Shown in pieces: positions 9,498 to 62,758 of a DNA stretch of 64,000 bases (its first letter is position 1; every line of letters begins with the position of its first letter). This DNA is from an uncultured bacterium (GTDB taxonomy: Bacteria > Patescibacteriota > Gracilibacteria > BD1-5 > UBA2023), in the NCBI GenBank assembly GCA_903908595.1, contig CAIVSN010000142.1, forward strand, positions 20,058 to 84,057. The letters run 5' to 3'. The translations under genes were made by a program, and so were the position numbers. The notes below the pieces were generated by a model. The model ran no database searches, was not told where the DNA came from, and was given only the letters and a program-made list of their open reading frames with translations.

Positions 9498-9576
9498 TGG
9501 AGCGGGGGACCGGGTTTGAACCGGCACACCCAAGGGTTGAAGCCTTAGTACACTCGCTCTTTTATGTTACCCCCGC
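9498..9576 (-). tRNA. tRNA with UCA anticodon, interpreted as tRNA-Gly(UCA) reading UGA
   Basis: GCGGGGG TA ACAT AAAAGAGCGA GTGT AC TAAGG CTTCAAC CCTTG GGTGT GCCGG TTCAAAC CCGGT CCCCCGC T CCA; 79 nt, 7-bp acceptor, anticodon loop CU-UCA-AC, encoded CCA, no long variable arm. Confidence 0.88.
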
Positions 9577-11545: not shown

Positions 11546-14500
11546 CTATCTCGAAATCCTTCTGAGCGTGTACTGCTCCAGGTATTTGGAGAGGAGCGGA
11601 GGCGGGTTCTTGAACGCCCGGGTAGAGTAATTGATGGTTACCCCGGTAGAGAGCGCCGTGGAAGCCTCGTTCGCCCGGATGAACGTCCGGCTGTTCACGA
11701 GATCCGTCAGGCTCGCATACACGTTTCCATCAACGGAAAGCTGTACGGTGGAAGCGGCCGAACCGGTCATTTTCCCTTCCAGGGCCATATAGACTCAGGA
11801 AATAGTCTTTACTGTGTCCTTGACCTGAACGGAAACCCCGGAATACGTACCGGTAGCCGATGGCTTCACGATAACGAATGACCAACTCGAATTCGGGTTC
11901 GCATACGTGATATCCCCATTGATTATCAGGGTACCTTCCTCGATAATCATAGTTCCGATTCCGTCGAGGACAAGATTGCCGTTGATCGTCACGGTTCCGC
12001 TTTTGATGGAATAGATATTCGACGCGTCACCCATCTTGGCGAAGTTGGCGAAGTTGAAATCCCCCATATTGGATACGGTCACGTCAGATGTCGAACCGGC
12101 ATTGACGCTTCCGACATTTATATCGTCAGCGCTCTGGCTGCCGATGGAACCGGCCGCTCCCGAAAGGGCTACGGCGGAAGAGCTCGCGCCAGAAGTGACT
12201 ACGAAGTTGCCGGATTGGATACTGGAGAGAAAGTCTTGGGTAATGGTATTCACGCTGTAACCGACCTGGGTTCCGATATAGGCGTTTCCTCCGGCGGTAT
12301 TGCTGACGGCCTGCCGGGAAACCCGGACTTTGATCGGATCCACGAGGTATCCGACCCCCAGGGTAAAGTTGTTTTGCATTACCGCGGATCCGAAGCTGAG
12401 CGGAGGATTGACGTCATCCGAGCTCGAACCGCTCGGAATGGGAGAACTGTCTCCTGAGAATCTTTTCCCGCTTCCACCGTTAACGGAACTGACGGCTCCT
12501 CCGGCCCCGACGGTAAATACGGTTTTGTTATTGGTACAAGATACCACTCAGGAATCGAATTCCACCGTTCCGGCCCCGATACATTCGTGAGCTCAAAACG
12601 CCGTGGTGACCGATCCGTTCGGCTGGATCAACGGGGAAATGTTCGATATTTTCGCATCGTGTCCGGCAAGGATGGTAGGGAACGGCGAAGTAATCGCGAA
12701 GGAATCGCCATTTTCGAATACCGGCACGTTGTTTCCGACGATCCATTGGTAATTGTTAATCGGCAATCCCTGCGGACGGGTAGGATTCACGGGATCGTAC
12801 GAGATGATGAGCGGATTGGACCTCGGGGTGGTCGTAGTAGTGGTATTCAATTGGCAATCCGTACAGACGGCATTGTTTATCGGACCGGCGGCGGTGGAAC
12901 CCGCATCGCACGTTTCGGTGGTTTTCACGACGCAATCGTAATGATCGAATACGCTTACGGTTTGCGGAAGCCCGAGTACCATTTGGATTTCGGTGCGGTT
13001 GACCGCCGTACAAGACTGGGCTCCGGCAATTGGGACGGGGGAAGAAAACGTCTTCGTCCAGATATCCACGATTCCGTTTCCGCAATACGGATTGGATCCT
13101 CCTCCGCCACCGCCGCAGACTCCGACGCACGGAATATATCCGACGCGCTGGCGACAGCTTCCCGCATCGATGATACCCGGAGACGCTGACGGAGTTCACT
13201 GCGTAGAACCGTTGACGTAACACACGGCAATCGTATTGTTAGCGGTCGAAGTGCTGTAGCTGCAGATTCCGGTAGGACCGGTGATCGTAGTACCGTTTCC
13301 GCAGTCGATGCTGAACGGCGGATTAATACCGGCGGACGCGGTAGCCGTACAGGTCATGGCAAGCGAATAGGTTCCATTGATGCTACTTACGGGACTGAAC
13401 AGCAGGCGTTCGCAGATGGAACCCCCACCTCCGCCTCCGGAAGAAGCGGAAATACTAACCTTACAGGAAGCCGGTATGACCGATGCGGCTTCCCCGTTCA
13501 CGCTACACGAAGCGATGTTGGATCCGAAAGCGGAATAGGTACAAGTACCCGTTCTTCCGCTGATGGAAGTGCCGTTTCCACAGTCGATGCTGTACGTGGG
13601 ATTCGCTCCCGCCGCAGCGGTAGCCGCACAGGTCAGAACCGAACTGTAAGGCACGGAACTCTGGTTCGTAGTGACGGAAGACGTGAGGGTGCTGCAAAAC
13701 GAACTCGGACCGGAAGAAGTGAAGCTTGCGGCACATGGTCCACCGACATTGGACGCTCAACAGGCCCAGGTGTAGGAAGTGGTAGCGGCGACGACGATTC
13801 CCGTAAACGAACTGACCGTTACCCCGGAGAGACAGAGTCAAGTGGAAGTGGAAGTGAGCGGAGCGGGTTGCGGACCGACGGTAGTACCCGGCACGCACGT
13901 ATTGACGGTGAGGTTCGCGGTACAGAGCCCGCCGACGGCGGAGCCGTTACATCCCCAGTTATAGGTGGTTACGTTCCCTACTGTGGTCGCGGCGAACCCG
14001 TTTACGGTTTGCCCAGCCGGACAGAGCCCGGCGGTGGAAGCGGTCACGGGCGCGGTCTGCGTCCCGACGGTGGTTCCGGGGGCGCAGGCGGGGGCGGTGG
14101 TGGAGTAGTTCGCGGTACAAAGGCCGCCGACGGCGGAGGCTCAGCAGCCCCAGACGTAGGTGGTGACCGTGCCGACGGTGGAGGCGGCGAACCCGTTTAC
14201 GGTTTGCCCTGCCGGACAGAGCCCGGCGGTGGAGGCGGTCACGGGAGCCGTCTGGGCGCCCGTTACGGCTCCCGGAACGCAGGCGGGGCCGGAAGTGTTG
14301 TAGCTCGCGGTACAGAGCCCGCCGACGGCGGAGCCGTTACATCCCCAGTTATAGGTGGTGACGGTGCCGGCGGTAGTCGCGGCGAACCCGTTTACGGTTT
14401 GCCCTGCCGGACAGAGCCCGGCGGTGGAGGCGGTCACGGGAGCCGTCTGGGCGCCCGTTACGGCTCCCGGAACGCAGGCGGGGCCACTGGTTGTAACGGT

Positions 14501-16417
14501 GACATTGGCTGGATCGCTATTGTTGTTCCCGTAATTATTGAAAGGATTTTCGTTGACGTTCGCTACCGTAGCCAGATTCCGGAAAGATCCGGTGGTCGCG
14601 GTGGTCGTCGCGGGAACGGTGATATCCGGGAAATCGGCACCGGAAGAAACCGTACTCATGGAAGTACAATTGAAACCCCTTCCGGTTCGGTTGCACGTCC
14701 ATCCGAGACCGGACGGCGTTCCGACGAAATCGACGCCGTTCGGAGACGGTCCCGAATCCGAAACGGTAGTTGCCGTCGAAGCGGCGGCGGCGCCGTTGTT
14801 CGTTACCCGAATGATATAGTTGAAAGCGGTATTGATGCGGAAAGCGACGGGATACCCGTCCTGTGCGTCCTGCGAAAGGTTGTTCACGTACTTTTTGAGC
14901 GACAAATCGAAATTGGAAAGCGGGGAAGTATACGTAGCGGAACACGAACCCCCAATGCCGGAAGTCCCACAGCCCCAGGTATACGAAGTCACGTTCCCGA
15001 CGGTAGTGGACGCGAAACCGGTGACGGCTTGTCCTGCGGGACAGAGCCCGGCAGTGGAGGCGGTGATCGGCGAGGACTGCACGCCACTGGTAGATCCCGG
15101 AGTACAGGCTCCGGCGCTCGGGGAATACACCGCCTGACAGAGTCAGCCCGGAGTGCTTCCGTTACACGACCAAGTATATACGACCGTGGTTCCGACCGGG
15201 GTCGACACGAAATCCCCGACGGCCTTTCCGGCGGGACAGAGCCCGGCGGTGGAGGCGGTTACGGGATTCGTTTGGTTTCCCGTCGTGGTTCCCGGAGTAC
15301 AAGCAACCGGTACCGGGGTCGTAATGATAACGTTGGCCTCGTCGCAGTTGTTCCCTCCGAAATCATTGAGGCTCGCTTCTTCGTTGTTTCGAACGCAGGA
15401 ATAGTTCATGAGGGAACTTTCGTACGGAGCCGTGGCCCCGACCTTCGCCTTGACGGTAATGACCGGGAGATCCTGCCCGGAAGCGAATACGGTATCGGTA
15501 TAACAGCTAAAACTCGTGCTGGTGGAAGTGCAGGTCCATCCGGATCCGCCAACGGCGGAAGCAGTTCCCGGATTCTCTATCGTCACTCCGGCAGGGAAGG
15601 CTATGTCTGAAACGGTAATTCGCCCACGGGTAGATGCTCCGCCGTTGTTCCGAGCTTTGAAAGTGTAGTCGATGGATTGTCCACGGGTTACCGTAACGGG
15701 AGAACCGTTCTGGGCATCTTGTCATTGCACGTATTTCTTCAGCGAAAGGTCGAAAGCCGAGACCTTGCAGTTCGCGGGGCACGCGCTGCCGGATACGCCG
15801 TTCTGGGCACCGAGATCGCAGTCCTCCCTTGAATCCTTCACCCCGTCGCCGCACCAATTGGAGTAATAAAACACGCATTCCGAATGGGATTCCGCAGTAG
15901 CGAAAGCCGTTGCGCTCGTGAAATACGTCGCATTGTAAATGAGCTTGAAACTCGGGGTCGTCCGGCTTCCCCCCGTATTCGGACCGGAAACGAACTGGAG
16001 CCCCGTCCCAGGTGCGGATTGTACGTATTTGCTCGCGGTTTGACCCGGAGTGAGAGCGATATACCAACCCTTGGTCGGGGAATACGAGGAGAACAGGGAA
16101 CTGTTCAGTTTCCACATGTTCGCGGATTCCGCCCAAGAAAACCCGGTCTGGACGTATTCGGTCTTCACCGTTCCGGGATTGTTCGCGAAAATGGCCGTAT
16201 TTACCGATCCGGCCGTGAAGTCGTCGTACAGGTTGCCGACGTATTGCCCCTGGTAGAGGGTGTCTCACTGGAAACATTGGTTGCACGAGGATCCGGCGCT
16301 TCAAAAGGTCGAACACGACACTTCCGGATATCCGGCTCAGGCGAACGCCGAGGAGGAAGCGAACGCGCTAGCGAGAAGGAAAGCAAGGCGAAATACGAAG
16401 AGAGGGGAGGTTTTCAT
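11546..16417 (-). CDS. Large secreted surface protein (~1623 aa) with signal peptide and DUF11-like/repeat modules
   Basis: Eight track ORFs (11546..11788, 11795..12547, 12593..13069, 13196..13654, 13838..14047, 14141..15130, 15143..15586, 15722..16168) share one frame and are split only by TGA; starts MKTSPLFVFRLAFLLASAFASSSAFA(G)AGYPEVSCSTF(G)SAG; FDLSLKKYVNN...RVTNNG...VSDSG is DUF11-like. Confidence 0.8.
13870..15290 (-). repeat. In-gene repeat array, ~195-bp units, at least 5-6 modules
   Basis: Protein unit GPACVPGAVTGAQTAPVTASTAGLCPAGQTVNGFAATT.GTVTTYNWGC...; units near 14200-14290 and 14395-14490 nearly identical at DNA level. Confidence 0.75.
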
Positions 16418-20942: not shown

Positions 20943-21110
20943 ATATCCAACGGGAATTGGTTTTCGGTATTTTACGGCCACAGATTCGGAATAGATTTTA
21001 TTTTTCTTCTTTCGGGAGCTTATCGGGAATAAGTGACCGAAGAAAAAAATAAAAGATGTCCGAAGATGTGGCTGGAAAAACCGGGAAACCAATTCCCGTT
21101 GGGTATATAT
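20943..21110. repeat. E1 palindromic repeat, copy A
   Basis: tatatCCAACGGGAATTGGTTTTCGGTATTTTACGG...CCGGGAAACCAATTCCCGTTGGgtata with internal stem TTTATTTTTCTTCTTTCGG..CCGAAGAAAAAAATAAA. Confidence 0.85.
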
Positions 21111-21218: not shown

Positions 21219-21341
21219 GGAAACCTTGGAAAAACGATGGAATCCGAAGTCTATTTCGAGCACCGTAGCGAGGCGTGGCAGCGCCACGTTGAGCGAGGAG
21301 CGCAGAAATAGACAAGGAGTTCACGTTTTGCCAGGGTTTCC
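21219..21341. repeat. E2 palindromic repeat
   Basis: GGAAACCTTGG..AAACG...GTCTATTTCGAG...GGCGTGGCAGCGCCACG...CAGAAATAGAC...CGTTTTGCCAGGGTTTCC. Confidence 0.75.
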
Positions 21342-31811: not shown

Positions 31812-32828
31812 TTATATGTCTCGACAATCTCGTTCGATTATTTCTTTATACCTTTTCACGAAGGGGGAATCCCACAGGATAAGTCACGCTTCCCGGTTCT
31901 CGTCGAGCGAATTCCTGGTAAAATTTTCGCTTCAGACGAACAGGATCGTATCGTCGATCAGGAGCGTTTTCGCGTGGACGTACGGGGACTTCGCCTGACG
32001 GAAATCCACTCCGATACCCTTCATACGCTCCGACAGGGCCTTCCGCTCGGCATCCGGCGCATAGGCTAGGCAAACTCGCACCGAAACGCCCCGTTTCCGC
32101 AATTCGGCGAATATTCATAGCAGCGATTCGTCCGACAGGGACGCCGCGAACAGGCGGACTTCGGTTTTGGCGGCGCGGAGATGCGATTCCAATTTGATCC
32201 GGGAATCGGTGGGCGAAAGGTAGGCATTCTCCTGGGAACCGCGAAAAGGGAACCGCTGGAAATCGGCTTCGAACAGCCGTTTCATGAACCCGACGGTCGG
32301 AACATCGGGGGTTTCCACCAAGAATTCCCGGTTTTTCGCGAACGATGTAGCGGTAAAATTCGAGGTAGCCAAATACAGGACGTCATCGGCCAGCACGTAT
32401 TTCGCATGATTGAAATTCTGCCGGGTCTCGTCCGCCCATCCGACCAGGATGCCCTCGTTCGCGAGCCGGGCGAACATATCCGCATTGCCCTTCGGGTTTT
32501 CATAGGGCGACCTTTCGAGAATGACCCTAACGGGAAGATTCCTCCGGCGTGCCGAAATCAGCGAATTGACGAGCTTCGTGTCCGAAAGGAGGTACACGTT
32601 CAGATCGACCGCGCGTTTCGCTCCATCGATTCTCGCCGCGAGCATGTCGCCGTTTCCGTCGTCAGGGGAAACCCAGACGCGGTGTTCGATGGGCCGGATT
32701 TCCGAAACGGCGTGCGCCGATCGGGGAATTTGCGCTTCCCACTCGCGCAATTCGGCATAATCCGAATACCGGCTTTCGCAGGAAACGCAAAGGAGCGTAG
32801 AAAACAACAGCAGGATATGCCTAACCAA
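31812..32828 (-). CDS. Phospholipase D-like lipoprotein
   Basis: VRHILLLFSTLLCVSC lipobox; RVILERSPYENPKGNADMFARLANEGILVGWADETRQNFNHAKYVLADDVLYLATSNFT and a second half after TGA (YVHAKTLLIDDTILFVSEAKI...). Confidence 0.75.
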
Positions 32829-32982
32829 ATGTGGTTTTCGGTATTTTATAGTTACGGATTCGGAATAGATTATATTTTTCTTCTTTCGGGAGCGTATCGG
32901 CAATACGTGACCGAAGAAAAAAATCGAAGATATCCGAATAGGTAAGCTGGAAAAACCGGGGAACCGATTTTGGTCAGGTATA
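32819..32982. repeat. E1 palindromic repeat, copy B (diverged)
   Basis: cctaaccaaatgtggttttcggtattttatagtt...gctggaaaaaccggggaaccgattttggtcaggtata. Confidence 0.75.
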
Positions 32983-34720: not shown

Positions 34721-35008
34721 GGAACGGAAAATTCGGCGAGGCCCAGGCGGAATATCGCGCCGGGAACCGCGTTAAAACGACGAAATCCGAAGTCAATTTC
34801 GAGTACCGTAGCGAGGCGTACCGATAGGTACGCCCGCAAGGAACGGAAAATTCGGCGAGGCCCGGGCGGAATATCGCGCCGGAAACCGCGTTAAAACGAC
34901 GAAATCCGAAGTCAATTTCGAGTACCGTAGCGAGGCGTACCGATAGGTACGCCCGCAAGGAACGCAGAAATTGACAAGGAGTTCGCGTTTTAACGCGGTT
35001 TCCCTATT
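34721..35008. repeat. E2 repeat with 119-bp tandem duplication
   Basis: GGAACGGAAAATTCGGCGAGG... recurs at 34721 and 34840, third partial unit at 34959; outer IR GGAAACCGCGTTAAAACG/CGTTTTAACGCGGTTTCC. Confidence 0.85.
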
Positions 35009-38580: not shown

Positions 38581-38777
38581 TACCCAACGGGAATTGGTTT
38601 TCGGTATTTTACGGTTACAGATTCGGAACAGGTTTTATTTTTCTTCTTCCGGGAGCTTATCGGGAATAAGTGACCGAAGAAAAAAATAAAAGATGTCCGA
38701 ATATGTGGCTGGAAAAACCGGGAAACCAATTCCGGATCCGTAACCGTAAAATACCGAAAACCAATTCCTATTGGGTA
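38581..38777. repeat. E1 palindromic repeat, copy C (rearranged)
   Basis: Normal E1 up to ...CCGGGAAACCAATTCC, then ggatccgtaaccgtaaaataccgaaaaccaattcctattgggta, the inverse complement of an E1 left end. Confidence 0.8.
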
Positions 38778-38848
38778 TATGAAACCATAAAAAAGAGACC
38801 CTCCTGCAAAAAAATCGAATTCCGGGAAGGATAGGAATGGGTTCGTCA

Positions 38849-40483: not shown

Positions 40484-40633
40484 AGGGAAGAAAAGTACCC
40501 TCCCACTGTACGATATTTTATTTGATAAGTCAAAAAGTAGACGTTTCTCCGTTTTCTTCTTTACTTAACGAGATTTTGGATAGAATTAGCGCAACTTTTT
40601 CTGAAAGGGTTTTTTTATTTTGAACCGATTACT

Positions 40634-42433
40634 ATGCTATACCGAAATGTCGCAATCATTGCCCACGTTGACCACGGAAAGACCACCCTCGTCGATGCCC
40701 TCCTCAAGCAGTCCGGGGTTTTCCGCGACAACGAAGCGGTAGAAGTGTGCGTCATGGACTCCAACGACCAAGAAAAGGAGCGCGGGATTACCATCTATGC
40801 GAAAAACACTGCCGTATTCTACAAGGATGTCAAAATCAACATCGTCGATACCCCCGGGCATGCCGACTTCGGATCCGAAGTCGAGCGGGTGCTGCGGATG
40901 GTCGACTCCGTCTGCCTCGTCGTCGACGCCTACGAAGGACCGATGCCGCAGACCAAATTCGTCCTCAAGAAGGCCCTGAGCCTCGGACTTCGGCCGATCG
41001 TCATCATCAACAAGATCGACAAGCCTACGGCGCGTCCCGACGAGGTCGTCGACATGCTCTTCGATCTCTTCGTCCAGCTCGGCGCTTCCGACGAACAGCT
41101 CGATTTTCCGGTCGTCTACGCGATTGCCCGGGAAGGGGTGGCGGTACGGAAACTCACCGACGAGAAAGTCGACATCCACCCGATTTTCGACATCATCCTC
41201 GAACACGTCGCCGCGGCGGAGAACGATTTGGAAAAGCCGTTCCGGATGCAGATCGCGAACCTCGCCTATGACAACTATCTCGGCCGCCTCGGTATCGGAC
41301 GCGTCTACGAAGGGGTCGTAAAGGCCGGACAGACCGTTACCATCCTCGGCAACGACGGTGCGAAGCGAACCGGAAAAATATCCAAGTGTTTCACCTCCCT
41401 CGGGCTCAAGCGGAACGAAGTGGCAGCAGCGGAAGCCGGAGATATCGTGACGATTGCGGGCATCGCCGACATCTACGTCGGGGAAACCGTTTCCAGCGTT
41501 CCGGATTTCGACGCCATGCCCCCGATCACCATCGACGAGCCGACGCTCAAAATGGAATTCCGCGTCAACGATTCCCCGTTTGCCGGCAAGGAAGGCAAGT
41601 ACGTGACTTCCCGCAATATCCGGGAACGCCTCGAAAAGGAATTGGAAATGAACGTGGGACTCAAGGTCGATTTCGAGGGTTCCGACGGAAACGGGTACAA
41701 CGTGTCCGGGCGTGGCGAACTCCATCTCTCCGTGCTCATCGAATCGATGCGGCGGGAAGGTTTCGAACTCTGCGTCGGGGCTCCTCAAGTCATCTTCCAC
41801 GAAGACGGCGGGAAAAGGCAGGAACCGATCGAGCAGGTAACGGTCTTCGTGCCGGAAGCCGACTCCGGATCCATCATCGAAGCCCTCGGGAAGCGGAAGG
41901 GCCTCATCAAGAACATGGACACCAAGAACTGAATCACGAATCTCGAATTCGAAGTACCGACCCGTGGGCTCCTCGGGTTCCGATCCCAGTTCGTCACACA
42001 GACCAAGGGAGAAGGCATCATCTATTCCGCGTTTTCCCATTACGAGGACTACAAGGGAACGATCGAAAAACGGGAAGTCGGATCCATGATTTCCGGCGTG
42101 GGCGGCAACTCCATGGCCTACTCGCTCTGGAAGCTCGAAGAACGCGGACCGATTTTTATCGATCCGCAGACCGAAGTTTACGAAGGGATGGTCATCGGGG
42201 AACACCTCAAGGGAGGCGACCTCGTCGTCAACCCCACCAAGAACAAGCAGCTCACCAACATGCGGGCTTCCGGAACGGACGAAGCGGTCCGGCTCACGCC
42301 CCCGCGCAAATTCTCCCTGGAAGAAGCGCTCGACTACATTTCTTCCAACGAATACGTCGAGGTCACCCCATTGAATATCCGCCTCCGCAAGAAATGACTC
42401 ACCGAAGCCGACCGCAAACGGAACGGCAAATAG
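40634..42433 (+). CDS. typA: Translational GTPase TypA/BipA
   Basis: [35 protein letters not shown]; after TGA: (G)[31 protein letters not shown]...NIRLRKK(G)[11 protein letters not shown]; stop TAG. Confidence 0.97.
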
Positions 42434-42436
42434 GGT

Positions 42437-42723
42437 GGGAACTCGGGCAAAACGCGAACTCCTTGTCAATTTCTCCGCTCCTCGCTCTGCGTATACCCAA
42501 ACGAATTTGGTTTTCGGTATTTTATGGTCATAGATTTGGAATAGATTTTATTTTTCTTCTTTTGGGAGCTTATCGGCAATAAGTGACCAAAGAAAAAAAT
42601 AAAAGATATCCAAATATGTGACGAGAAAAACCGGGAAACCAATTTCGTTTGGGTATACTTGCCAGTACGCTTCGCTACGGTGCTCGAAATTGACTTCGGA
42701 TTTCATCGTTTTTCCCGAGTCCC
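42437..42723. repeat. E2 repeat interrupted by E1 copy D
   Basis: gggaactcgggcaaaacgcgaactccttgtcaatttc...[E1]...cgaaattgacttcggatttcatcgtttttcccgagtccc. Confidence 0.85.
42494..42655. repeat. E1 palindromic repeat, copy D (nested in E2)
   Basis: tacccaaacgaatttggttttcgg...ccgggaaaccaatttcgtttgggta, flanked by TA on both sides. Confidence 0.88.
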
Positions 42724-42755
42724 GGGGGAAGACGCGACCGGAAAAAGACAATTTT

Positions 42756-42783
42756 TTGACAAAATCCCCTCCTTCCATACAAT
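42756..42783 (+). promoter_or_regulatory. Promoter upstream of rpsU
   Basis: TTGACA-16 nt-TACAAT. Confidence 0.65.
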
Positions 42784-42809
42784 CTCCATCATTCTAACAC
42801 CCATTCCAC

Positions 42810-43013
42810 ATGATCGTATACGCGATTAAAAACTCTACCGAGTCCAACGAAAAACTCGTTCTCCGCTACAAGAAGATGTTCTTCCAAACCCGCACTGCCA
42901 ACAAGCTCAAAGCCGAAGCCCAGGAGCAACGGAAGGTAAGCCGGCGGAAAATCCGGGAAGCCGCGATCGTCCGGAATTTTTACCGAGTGGCTAACAAAAA
43001 CAACGCCGCGTAG
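42810..43013 (+). CDS. rpsU: Ribosomal protein bS21
   Basis: MIVYAIKNSTESNEKLVLRYKKMFFQTRTANKLKAEAQEQRKVSRRKIREAAIVRNFYRVANK. Confidence 0.8.
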   Translation: MIVYAIKNSTESNEKLVLRYKKMFFQTRTANKLKAEAQEQRKVSRRKIREAAIVRNFYRVANKNNAA

Positions 43014-43033
43014 TTAAAACTATATTATACCAC

Positions 43034-43065
43034 AAAAAAACAGATCTGTAACGGTCTGTTTTTTT
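43034..43065. terminator. Hairpin terminator
   Basis: AAAAAAACAGATCTGTAACGGTCTGTTTTTTT. Confidence 0.65.
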
Positions 43066-43114
43066 GACCTTCGCGAAAAGATAGGATACGCTATGGAGGT
43101 CAATATAAAAACCA

Positions 43115-44263
43115 ATGCAAAATACCCCTATCGCCGATCTCCTGACCGAACTGGAAACCCCAAAGACCCCTTTGATCGAAGGGATTGCCAGAAATCCCGA
43201 AACGCCGGCCGTTTCCCCGTTCAACACCTCCATTTCCTTCCTGTCGAACCGGATGGAAGATACCCTCCTGAACCTCGAAGAAACGCCTTCGGTGACATGG
43301 GACATGCTTTCCAGCCTCGAAGAAATACCGGTTGTCACCGAGGCAAAAACAGCGGCGATTCCCGATATGCTCCTAAGCCTGGAAGCGTCGCCCGTCGCCC
43401 GGACGATTTTGGACGTATCGGTGGTACCGAAATCCCCGGCTTCGAACCTCGCGGCGAACCTGAAAGCCGGACTCCGATTCCTTTCCCATTACGTAGCGGT
43501 TTCCAGTATCGTATTCGCGGTACTGCTCGTTGCGACGAATTGGTCGGCCTACTATACGGTAGTCCTCAACTATGTAAGCCCCGGGGAAGTCCTCGCGGCG
43601 AACCAGCAGATCCAAGAAACCCTCTCCAATTCCAAAATCACCGTGTATGCCGACGAGTCCGGCACGAGCGCTTTTGAGAAGAACGAGAAGGCTGAAGATA
43701 TAAAGAAGCAACTGGACGCGGAAAACATCCAAGTCGACGAAGAGCCGTTTTCCATGAAAAACCTCATCCCGACCGAGCCGAACATTTCCGCGAAATTCAA
43801 TATCACCCCCTACGAAAACCGCATCATCATTCCGAAAATCGGGAAAAACATCCCTCTGGTCGATATTTCCATCACGAAGTCTTTCGATTTCGATCACATG
43901 GAAAATATCTTCATGACGGAATTGGAGAAGGGCGTGGTCCGATACCCCGGATCGGCGGCCCCCGGTGAAAAAGGCAACGCGTTCGTCTTTGGCCACTCGT
44001 CCAACTATCCTTGGATGAAAGGGAACTACAACGAAGTTTTCGCGCTCCTCGACAACGTCGAATTCGGCGATCAGATCATCGTTTTTTATAACCAGAAAAA
44101 ATTCGTGTACACCGTCCGGGAGAAAAAAATCGTCCGTCCCGGGGACGTGAAAGCACTGGAAAGGAATCCCGAAGCCACCGAACTCTCGCTCATGACGTGC
44201 TGGCCCATCGGCACCACCCTCAAGCGCATGCTCGTGTTCGCCGAATTAACCGAAACCCACTAA
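43115..44263 (+). CDS. Sortase-family transpeptidase
   Basis: RIIIPKIGKNIPLVDIS, GNAFVFGHSS, LMTCWPIGTTLKRMLVFAEL (catalytic His, Cys, Arg). Confidence 0.85.
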   Translation: MQNTPIADLLTELETPKTPLIEGIARNPETPAVSPFNTSISFLSNRMEDTLLNLEETPSVTWDMLSSLEEIPVVTEAKTAAIPDMLLSLEASPVARTILDVSVVPKSPASNLAANLKAGLRFLSHYVAVSSIVFAVLLVATNWSAYYTVVLNYVSPGEVLAANQQIQETLSNSKITVYADESGTSAFEKNEKAEDIKKQLDAENIQVDEEPFSMKNLIPTEPNISAKFNITPYENRIIIPKIGKNIPLVDISITKSFDFDHMENIFMTELEKGVVRYPGSAAPGEKGNAFVFGHSSNYPWMKGNYNEVFALLDNVEFGDQIIVFYNQKKFVYTVREKKIVRPGDVKALERNPEATELSLMTCWPIGTTLKRMLVFAELTETH

Positions 44264-46095: not shown

Positions 46096-46257
46096 TATGC
46101 CCAATAGGAATTGATTTTCGGTATTTTACGGTTACAGATTCGGAACAGGTTGTATTTTTCTTCATTCAGGAGCTTATCAGCGATAAGCGACCGGAGAAAA
46201 AAAAGATGTCCGAATATGCGACTGGAAAAACCGGGAAACCAATTCCTATTGGGCATA
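46096..46257. repeat. E1 palindromic repeat, copy E
   Basis: TATGCCCAATAGGAATTG...AATTCCTATTGGGCATA. Confidence 0.85.
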
Positions 46258-46263
46258 CGTTCC

Positions 46264-46387
46264 GGGAACCTTGGCAAAACGATGAAATCCGAAGCTAAAT
46301 TTGAGTACCGTAGCGAAACGTACTGGCAAGTACGTAGAGCGAGGAACGGAAAATTTGGCAAGGAGTTCGCGTTTTCCCAAGGTTCCC
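46264..46387. repeat. E2 palindromic repeat
   Basis: gggaaccttggcaaaacgatgaaatccgaagctaaatttgagtaccg...acgtactggcaagtacgt...gaaaatttggcaaggagttcgcgttttcccaaggttccc. Confidence 0.82.
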
Positions 46388-46753: not shown

Positions 46754-46968
46754 TATACCCAACGGGAATTGGTTTTCGGTATTTTACGGTTGGAGGCCTC
46801 TGCAAAACGCGAACTCCTCGCTCATTTCTCCGCTCCTTGCGGATTCGGAACGGGTTGTATTTTTTCTTCTTTCGGGAGCTTATCGTCAATAAGTAACCGA
46901 AGAAAAAAATAAAAGGTGTCCGGATACGTGGCTGGAAAAACCAGGAAACCGATTCCCGTTTGGTATAT
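46754..46968. repeat. E1 palindromic repeat, copy F, carrying an internal E2 fragment
   Basis: tatacccaacgggaattggttttcggtattttacggt[tggaggcctctgcaaaacgcgaactcctcgctcatttctccgctccttgc]ggattcggaacggg...aaaccgattcccgtttggtata. Confidence 0.8.
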
Positions 46969-46969
46969 T

Positions 46970-47094
46970 TCCCAGGACTTCGGAAAAACGATGAAATCCG
47001 AAGCCGAATTCGAGTACCGTAGCGAGGCGTACGATAGTACGCCCGCAAGGAACGGAAAATTCAGCGAGGAGTTCGCGTTTTGCACAGGGCACCA
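46970..47094. repeat. E2 palindromic repeat
   Basis: cggaaaaacgatgaaatccgaagccgaattcgagtaccgtagcgaggcgtacgatagtacgcccgcaaggaacggaaaattcagcgaggagttcgcgttttg. Confidence 0.75.
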
Positions 47095-47214
47095 GGAACC
47101 CGTCAAAACGATGAAATCCGAAGCCGGATTCGAGTACCGTAGGGAAACGTACTGGCAAGTACGTTGAGCGAGGAACGGAGAAACCGGCGAGGAGTTCGCG
47201 TTTTGACGGGTTCC
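47095..47214. repeat. E2 palindromic repeat
   Basis: GGAACCCGTCAAAACG...gccggattcgag...gagaaaccggc...CGTTTTGACGGGTTCC (perfect 16-bp outer IR). Confidence 0.85.
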
Positions 47215-48227: not shown

Positions 48228-48307
48228 GCCGCCATTGTAATCCGCAGCCTATAATTCGCAACCCCGACATTTCCATTTCAAAGCGACAACTGGCATTCTG
48301 ATTGGCA

Positions 48308-48471
48308 TACCCAATAGGAATTGGTTTTCGGCTTTTTACGGTTACGGATTCGGAACAGGTTTTATTTTTCTTCTTTCGGGAGCTTATCGGGAATAAGTGA
48401 CCGAAGAAAAAAATAAAAGATGTCCGAATACGTGACTGGAAAAACCGGGAAACCAATTCCTATTGGGTATA
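48308..48471. repeat. E1 palindromic repeat, copy G
   Basis: atacccaataggaattggttttcgg...ccgggaaaccaattcctattgggtat. Confidence 0.85.
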
Positions 48472-51503: not shown

Positions 51504-51670
51504 TATGCGCCTAACCAAATCTGGTTTCCCGGTTTTCCAGTCACGTATTCGGTTATCTTTCATTTTTTTCTTCGGCCATGTATTGCCGATACGCTCACAA
51601 AAGAAGAAACATACAATCCATTCCGAATCCATGGCCATAAAATACCGAAAACCGGATTCGCTTAAGCATA
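51504..51670. repeat. E1 palindromic repeat, copy H (diverged, opposite orientation)
   Basis: tatgcgcctaaccaaatctggtttcccggttttccagtcacgtattcgg...cataaaataccgaaaaccggattcgcttaagcata. Confidence 0.7.
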
Positions 51671-62592: not shown

Positions 62593-62758
62593 TATACCCA
62601 ATAGGAATTGGTTTTCGGTATTTTACGGTCATAGATTCGGAACAGGTTTTATTTTTCTTCTTTCGGGAGCTTATCGGGAATAAGTGACCGAAGAAAAAAA
62701 TAAAAGATGTCCGGATACGTGGCTGGAAAAACCGGGAAACCAATTCCTATTGGGTATA
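62593..62758. repeat. E1 palindromic repeat, copy I
   Basis: tatacccaataggaattggttttcggtattttacggtcatag...ccgggaaaccaattcctattgggtata. Confidence 0.88.

What the first reader, a model, noticed from the sequence alone, without database searches (positions are those of the whole stretch)
42437..42723. Clean insertion of E1 inside E2 with an apparent TA duplication
Intact E2 (for example 46264..46387, reverse complement) reads ..ctcgctctacgTActtgccagtacg... Here it reads ctcgctctgcgTA[TACCCAAACG...CGTTTGGGTA]TActtgccagtacg, with the rest of E2 resuming exactly. This shows E1 is (or was) mobile as a unit, and the TA target duplication is like that of IS630/Tc1-mariner-type MITEs.
Basis: seen in the sequence. 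Interest (0 to 1): 0.78.

Follow-up and report, generated by a model that had tools for sequence, protein, structure and literature searches.

The report
IS630-type MITE inserted in hairpin repeat
A short non-coding jumping element (E1), almost certainly moved by an IS630-type transposase still present in this bacterium, has jumped into a TA inside a second, older hairpin repeat (E2), and independent E1 copies have hit the very same TA in other E2 copies.

Summary
Window 42439-42723 is one E2 repeat cut by a 162-bp E1 (TACCC...GGGTA, 42494-42655), with the target TA on both sides. Among 81 full E1 copies, 69 have TA on both sides and 80 on at least one. The assembly carries a 1355-bp IS630 element (DD34E transposase, NF033545, 179 bits against a cut-off of 100) with matching TACCCAA...TTGGGTA ends and TA flanks, plus three more contig ends broken inside copies of it. 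E1 (about 161 core matches) is absent from 39 relatives; E2 (about 219) occurs, weakly, in 7 of the 39. One same-genus genome lacks both at this locus.

Those E1 copies are scattered in the E1 tree, so the hits are mostly independent. The two arms of both repeats co-vary between copies.

So: a new family of a well-known kind (IS630 MITE), with a recurrent palindrome target. Whether the recurrence comes from transposase preference or from tolerance of such insertions is open.

The parts
42439..42491 (+). 5' half of the interrupted E2 hairpin repeat
   Evidence: joins with the 3' half to one continuous E2 match, E = 6e-36; arms complementary to the 3' half
42492..42493 (.). target TA, left copy
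   Evidence: Direct reading; intact E2 copies have a single TA here
42494..42655 (+). E1: 162-bp IS630-type MITE, TACCCAAACG...CGTTTGGGTA, no coding sequence of its own
   Evidence: right terminal repeat matches each end of the resident IS630 at 28 of 33 positions, left at 22 of 33
42656..42657 (.). target TA, right copy (duplication)
42658..42723 (+). 3' half of the interrupted E2 hairpin repeat
46267..46386 (-). uninterrupted E2 (reference empty site)
   Evidence: DNA fold z = -6.7
20943..21106 (+). E1 copy, TA/TA flanks
32817..32981 (+). E1 copy, diverged subfamily (TGCCTAACC...GGTCAGGTA), TA/TA flanks
38581..38778 (+). E1 copy with a rearranged right end: a second E1 end in inverted orientation follows it
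46097..46256 (+). E1 copy next to the intact E2, TA/TA flanks
46755..46966 (+). E1 copy split by a fragment of E2 (the reverse nesting)
48307..48470 (+). E1 copy, left flank CA instead of TA, right flank TA
51507..51670 (-). E1 copy, diverged subfamily, TA/TA flanks
62594..62757 (+). E1 copy close to the consensus, TA/TA flanks
40634..42433 (+). typA/bipA gene upstream; one open frame only if TGA is read as Gly

Best explanation
E1 is a non-autonomous miniature element (MITE) of the IS630/Tc1-mariner group. An IS630 transposase made by a resident 1355-bp insertion sequence recognises the shared terminal repeats (TACCCAA.....AATTGG), cuts E1 out at its ends and joins it into a TA, which is duplicated. 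Here the target was the TA at the tip of the hairpin repeat E2 downstream of typA. Shown: the nested anatomy, the TA duplication, the shared ends, the resident transposase and repeated hits at the same TA. Inferred: that this transposase actually moved E1, and that movement was cut-and-paste.
For: Junctions and a paralogous empty site. TA/TA in 69 of 81 full copies, 80 of 81 on at least one side. Resident IS630: DDE_3 PF13358 at 110 bits against a cut-off of 28.6, NF033545 transpos_IS630 at 179 bits against 100, catalytic D173-D253-34-E288, ends TACCCAACACGAATTGGTTTCCCGGTTTTTC and TACCCAACGGGAATTGGTTTCCCGGTTTTC, TA flanks. Three more contigs break inside IS copies, each with TA-TACCCAACGGG and different outer DNA. 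About 161 core matches in the own genome, 0 for the reversed control, 0 of 39 relatives with E1: a recent, lineage-limited spread. Eleven junctions at the same TA of E2, in both E1 orientations, scattered in the E1 tree.
Against: No transposition was observed. E1's left end matches the IS less well (22-24 of 33) than its right end (28 of 33 for this copy), and the E1 core is unrelated to the IS, so the partner is inferred from the ends alone. 12 of 81 copies have a changed flank on at least one side. No strain pair with an empty E2 at this locus was available.
Confidence: 0.95

Rival explanations
1. The nested E1-in-E2 unit arose once and spread as a composite, with E2 as the mover.
For: E2 is itself a multi-copy family (about 219 tail matches), and all apex insertions use the same one of the two near-symmetric tip TAs.
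Against: E1 lies in both orientations in the apex sites; apex E1 copies carry different end variants (AAACGAA, AATTGGA, AACAGGA, AAAAGGA, AATAGGA) and need 4 changes on the E1 tree, no better than shuffled labels, with 0 of 200 bootstrap trees making them one group; host E2 copies differ in their own arms.
Confidence: 0.05
2. The repeated use of the E2 tip TA is a structural preference: the transposase favours TA at the tip of a hairpin or cruciform.
For: 7 of 81 full E1 copies are at this TA; 0.7 to 1.8 expected if all intergenic TAs were equal (P from 8e-6 to 0.002, depending on the intergenic share assumed). Judged by local bases the site is middling (45th percentile of window TAs, while actual insertion sites average the 84th). 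E2 folds strongly.
Against: The other tip TA has no insertions; it scores worse on local bases (19th percentile). Non-E2 target sites show no palindrome excess. Numbers are small and the intergenic share is only estimated.
Confidence: 0.3
3. The repeated use reflects tolerance plus local base preference: E2 tips are harmless landing pads, a tip insertion leaves the E2 stems intact, and the left tip TA is the best-scoring common TA in E2.
For: Among the TAs common in E2 the left tip TA scores best locally (45th percentile against 2nd to 36th for the others); the E2 stems still pair around E1; four further clean E1 insertions lie elsewhere in E2.
Against: Does not by itself explain why a middling site is hit several times more often than average.
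Confidence: 0.55
4. E1 is an internal part of E2 that most E2 copies have lost.
For: Remnants of E1 exist in some E2 copies (C136, C31, C59).
Against: E1 stands alone at about 70 sampled sites; the E2-like repeats found in relatives have no E1; E1 occurs in either orientation within E2.
Confidence: 0.01

Closest known systems
IS630 family insertion sequences (ISY100, Synechocystis)
   Same: DDE transposase, inserts into TA and duplicates it; 34 of 39 in vitro products had a normal TA duplication, others had one side altered (PMC2170065), close to 69 of 81 here
   Different: The elements here are 162 to 164-bp MITEs; transposase identity to the best plasmid-borne IS630 hit is 43.8%
MITEs of IS630/Tc1-mariner elements in bacteria (reviewed in PMC2229807, PMC10969869; both seen here only as search hits)
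   Same: Short, non-coding, terminal inverted repeats shared with a full element, TA flanks, high copy number
   Different: Own sequence family; no match in 39 relatives; almost the whole element is an imperfect palindrome whose end variants match each other within a copy
REP-targeting insertion sequences (IS1397, ISKpn1, IS621, ISPpu9, ISPpu10; PMC1525189)
   Same: A mobile element repeatedly inserted at one fixed point of an abundant extragenic palindrome
   Different: That survey lists families IS3, IS110, IS4, IS256 and IS5, not IS630; here only about one E1 in seven sits in the palindrome family, whereas ISPpu9 and ISPpu10 are 7 of 7
Template-switch maintenance of hairpin arms (PMC8794818, PMC8604942; abstracts only)
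   Same: Paired changes in both arms, as in E1 ends and E2 stems
   Different: Not demonstrated in this organism; inferred from co-variation and few G-T intermediates

Membership tests
IS630-derived MITE (E1) | Duplication of a TA target on insertion | tested here: met
   TA/TA in 69 of 81 copies; clean single-TA empty sites in E2
IS630-derived MITE (E1) | Terminal inverted repeats shared with an IS630 element of the same genome | tested here: met
   TACCCAA..AATTGGTTT at both ends of the IS at C168 and of E1; right end 28 of 33 identical for this copy
IS630-derived MITE (E1) | No transposase of its own, short, multi-copy | tested here: met
   Mostly 160-166 bp, about 161 core matches
IS630-derived MITE (E1) | Mobilised by the IS630 transposase | not testable with these tools
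   Needs an experiment
IS630 family (resident element, C168:11225-12579) | Transposase recognised as IS630, DD34E triad | tested here: met
   NF033545 179 bits against a cut-off of 100; D173, D253, 34 residues, E288
IS630 family (resident element) | Terminal inverted repeats and TA flanks | tested here: met
   27 of 30 end positions match; TA on both sides
REP-targeting mobile elements | Near-exclusive insertion into the palindrome family | tested here: not met
   11 of 81 full E1 copies touch E2, 7 of them at the tip TA

The most novel reading that the evidence does not exclude
An IS630-type transposase whose MITEs favour the tips of a resident long-hairpin repeat for structural reasons (cruciform or single-strand hairpin), making E2 a standing landing pad, while both repeats keep their arms paired through template-switch correction.
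Probability: 0.2. Interest if true: 0.55.

Novelty: new member of a known kind. Interest (0 to 1): 0.4.

Why it matters
It pins down the mechanism and the order of events for two abundant repeats in a bacterium that appears to read TGA as glycine: E2 is older and shared with relatives, E1 is a recent lineage-limited invader that still has an apparently intact transposase. It also gives an internal set of repeated insertions at one TA that can be used to ask whether IS630/Tc1-type transposases read DNA shape. As a class of event it is ordinary.

Tried and rejected
Rfam on the window: only tRNAs, no family for E1 or E2. Target sites as palindromes in general: non-E2 sites show no palindrome excess (mean 1.25 of 5 pairs against 1.37 shuffled). 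Composite spreading as a unit: rejected by the tree and both orientations. E1 as an internal deletion of the resident IS: the core has no similarity beyond the ends. IS5/PIF-type 3-bp duplication: not considered further once the IS630 partner was found. Strain-level empty E2 at this locus: the only same-genus genome lacks E2 as well. The intergenic share was only crudely estimated (greedy ORFs% coding, an overestimate), so the enrichment is given as a range. Literature searches gave no paper on MITEs in this bacterial group.

Full report
What is there. E2 occupies 42439-42723 and is cut by E1 at 42494-42655, with TA at 42492-42493 and again at 42656-42657. Joining the flanks with one TA gives a continuous E2 (E = 6e-36). 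The arms of the two halves pair with each other and differ from those of other E2 copies, so the halves belong together.

E1 family. A 24-base core pattern of E1 matches 161 places in the 2.41-Mb assembly and none when reversed. From the stretches fetched, 105 distinct copies were located, 81 of them full length with both ends. TA stands on both sides in 69 and on at least one side in 80. My end-finding rule favours the A of the left TA but not its T, so the T frequency (about 90% against roughly 25% expected) is the unbiased part. Two subfamilies exist, TACCCAA(TAGG/CGGG/..)AATTGG and TACCTAAGCGAATTTGG.

The mover. PF13358 finds one intact gene at C168: 342 aa, IS630 by NCBIfam (179 bits, cut-off 100), DD34E, with weak matches to Sleeping Beauty and Mos1 chains in the PDB. 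It lies in a 1355-bp element with ends TACCCAACACGAATTGGTTTCCCGGTTTTTC and TACCCAACGGGAATTGGTTTCCCGGTTTTC (27 of 30 matching) and TA outside both. Three further contigs end inside copies of the same element, each with a different outer flank after TA, so the IS is present at least four times. E1 shares its ends, not its core. The closest named genome hit is a Runella MAG contig at 53%; the closest plasmid hit is 43.8%.

Age. E1 is found in none of 39 relatives, the same-genus genome included. E2-like repeats occur in 7 of the 39 (aligned). At the typA locus the same-genus genome is collinear on both sides (window 40585-42420 and 42742-43157), but window 42421-42741 is replaced by 18 bases: it has neither E2 nor E1 there. 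So E2 is the older family, E1 came later, and in this lineage E2 was present at this site before E1 entered it.

Repeated hits on one TA. Mapping E1 sites onto the E2 model and searching both junctions genome-wide gives eleven E2 copies with E1 material at the same tip TA: C142 (this one), C9, C14, C103 and C144:4312 (complete E1, TA/TA); C144:68461 (cut by a contig end); C5 and C76 (one E2 half lost or rearranged); C136, C31:11844 and C59 (remnants). In C136 only TACCCAATGGGTA is left inside an otherwise whole E2, which looks like deletion between the palindrome arms (inference). E1 lies in both orientations relative to E2. On the E1 tree the apex copies are scattered (4 changes against 3.5 for shuffled labels; one group in 0 of 200 bootstrap trees), so most are separate insertions. 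Four other clean insertions are elsewhere in E2. The opposite tip TA has none.

Why that TA. Outside E2 the targets are AT-rich around TA, with A at -3 and T at +4 favoured. By that measure the tip TA is average (45th percentile of window TAs) but the best of the TAs common in E2; the opposite tip TA is at the 19th percentile. Against all intergenic TAs, 7 of 81 is 4 to 10 times the expected number (P between 8e-6 and 0.002, depending on the intergenic share assumed). I favour tolerance plus local base preference over a structural preference, weakly; the data do not decide.

Paired arms. E2 is a 40-pair hairpin in which 16 pairs change on both sides between copies (109 cells against 35 shuffled; 97.8% of cells paired; slid controls 28-49%), with few G-T intermediates. 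E1 end variants match within a copy: the hexamer at positions 8-13 is the same at both ends in 49 of 81 copies against 14 shuffled. Since E1 is a mobile DNA element, the simplest common cause is arm-to-arm correction by template switching during replication (mechanism described in PMC8794818 and PMC8604942, abstracts only); selection for an RNA structure in E2 is not excluded.

Verdict. Observation confirmed, interpretation supported. E1 is a new IS630 MITE family, ordinary in kind. The extra interest is the recurrent palindrome-tip target and the co-varying arms.

Noticed in passing
window 46267-46386 (-), 21222-21340 (-), 34884-35002 (-), 46969-47204 (-) and about 219 places genome-wide: E2 is a 120-bp, 40-pair hairpin repeat with strong co-variation, tandem arrays of about 120-145 bp spacing, copies that often start just after a stop codon, and a TCCGGG-like 3' flank. 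No Rfam family in the window scan. Its function and mode of spread are unknown.
   Followed up: partly
window 40634-42433 (typA) and 9498-9576 (tRNA called SeC, tca): typA is one frame only if TGA is sense (2 TGA codons); the tRNA with anticodon TCA beside a tRNA-Gly is probably the UGA-glycine tRNA, as in Gracilibacteria/Absconditabacteria (code 25). Taxon inferred, not looked up by name.
   Followed up: partly
whole assembly G000: 2.4 Mb in 186 contigs, against 0.7 to 1.5 Mb in 39 relatives; many contigs end inside E1, E2 or the IS. Repeat expansion or a mixed bin could explain the size.
   Followed up: no
L160 (C136:571-609), L162 (C31:11844): E1 remnants reduced to TACCCAATGGGTA and TACCCGATTCCTATTGGGTA at the E2 tip TA: losses of the E1 interior.
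   Followed up: partly
window 46755-46966: Reverse nesting: an E2 fragment lies inside an E1 copy.
   Followed up: no
L010 540-900 and 1470-1560: Repeated stretch with tRNA-like ends (GGGACTTGAACCCGAGGCATTTTCGGAGCGGAGCGG...) downstream of a tRNA-Leu-like gene; a further repeat family.
   Followed up: no
window 13915-15296: Tandem 195-bp direct repeats inside a long open frame.
   Followed up: no
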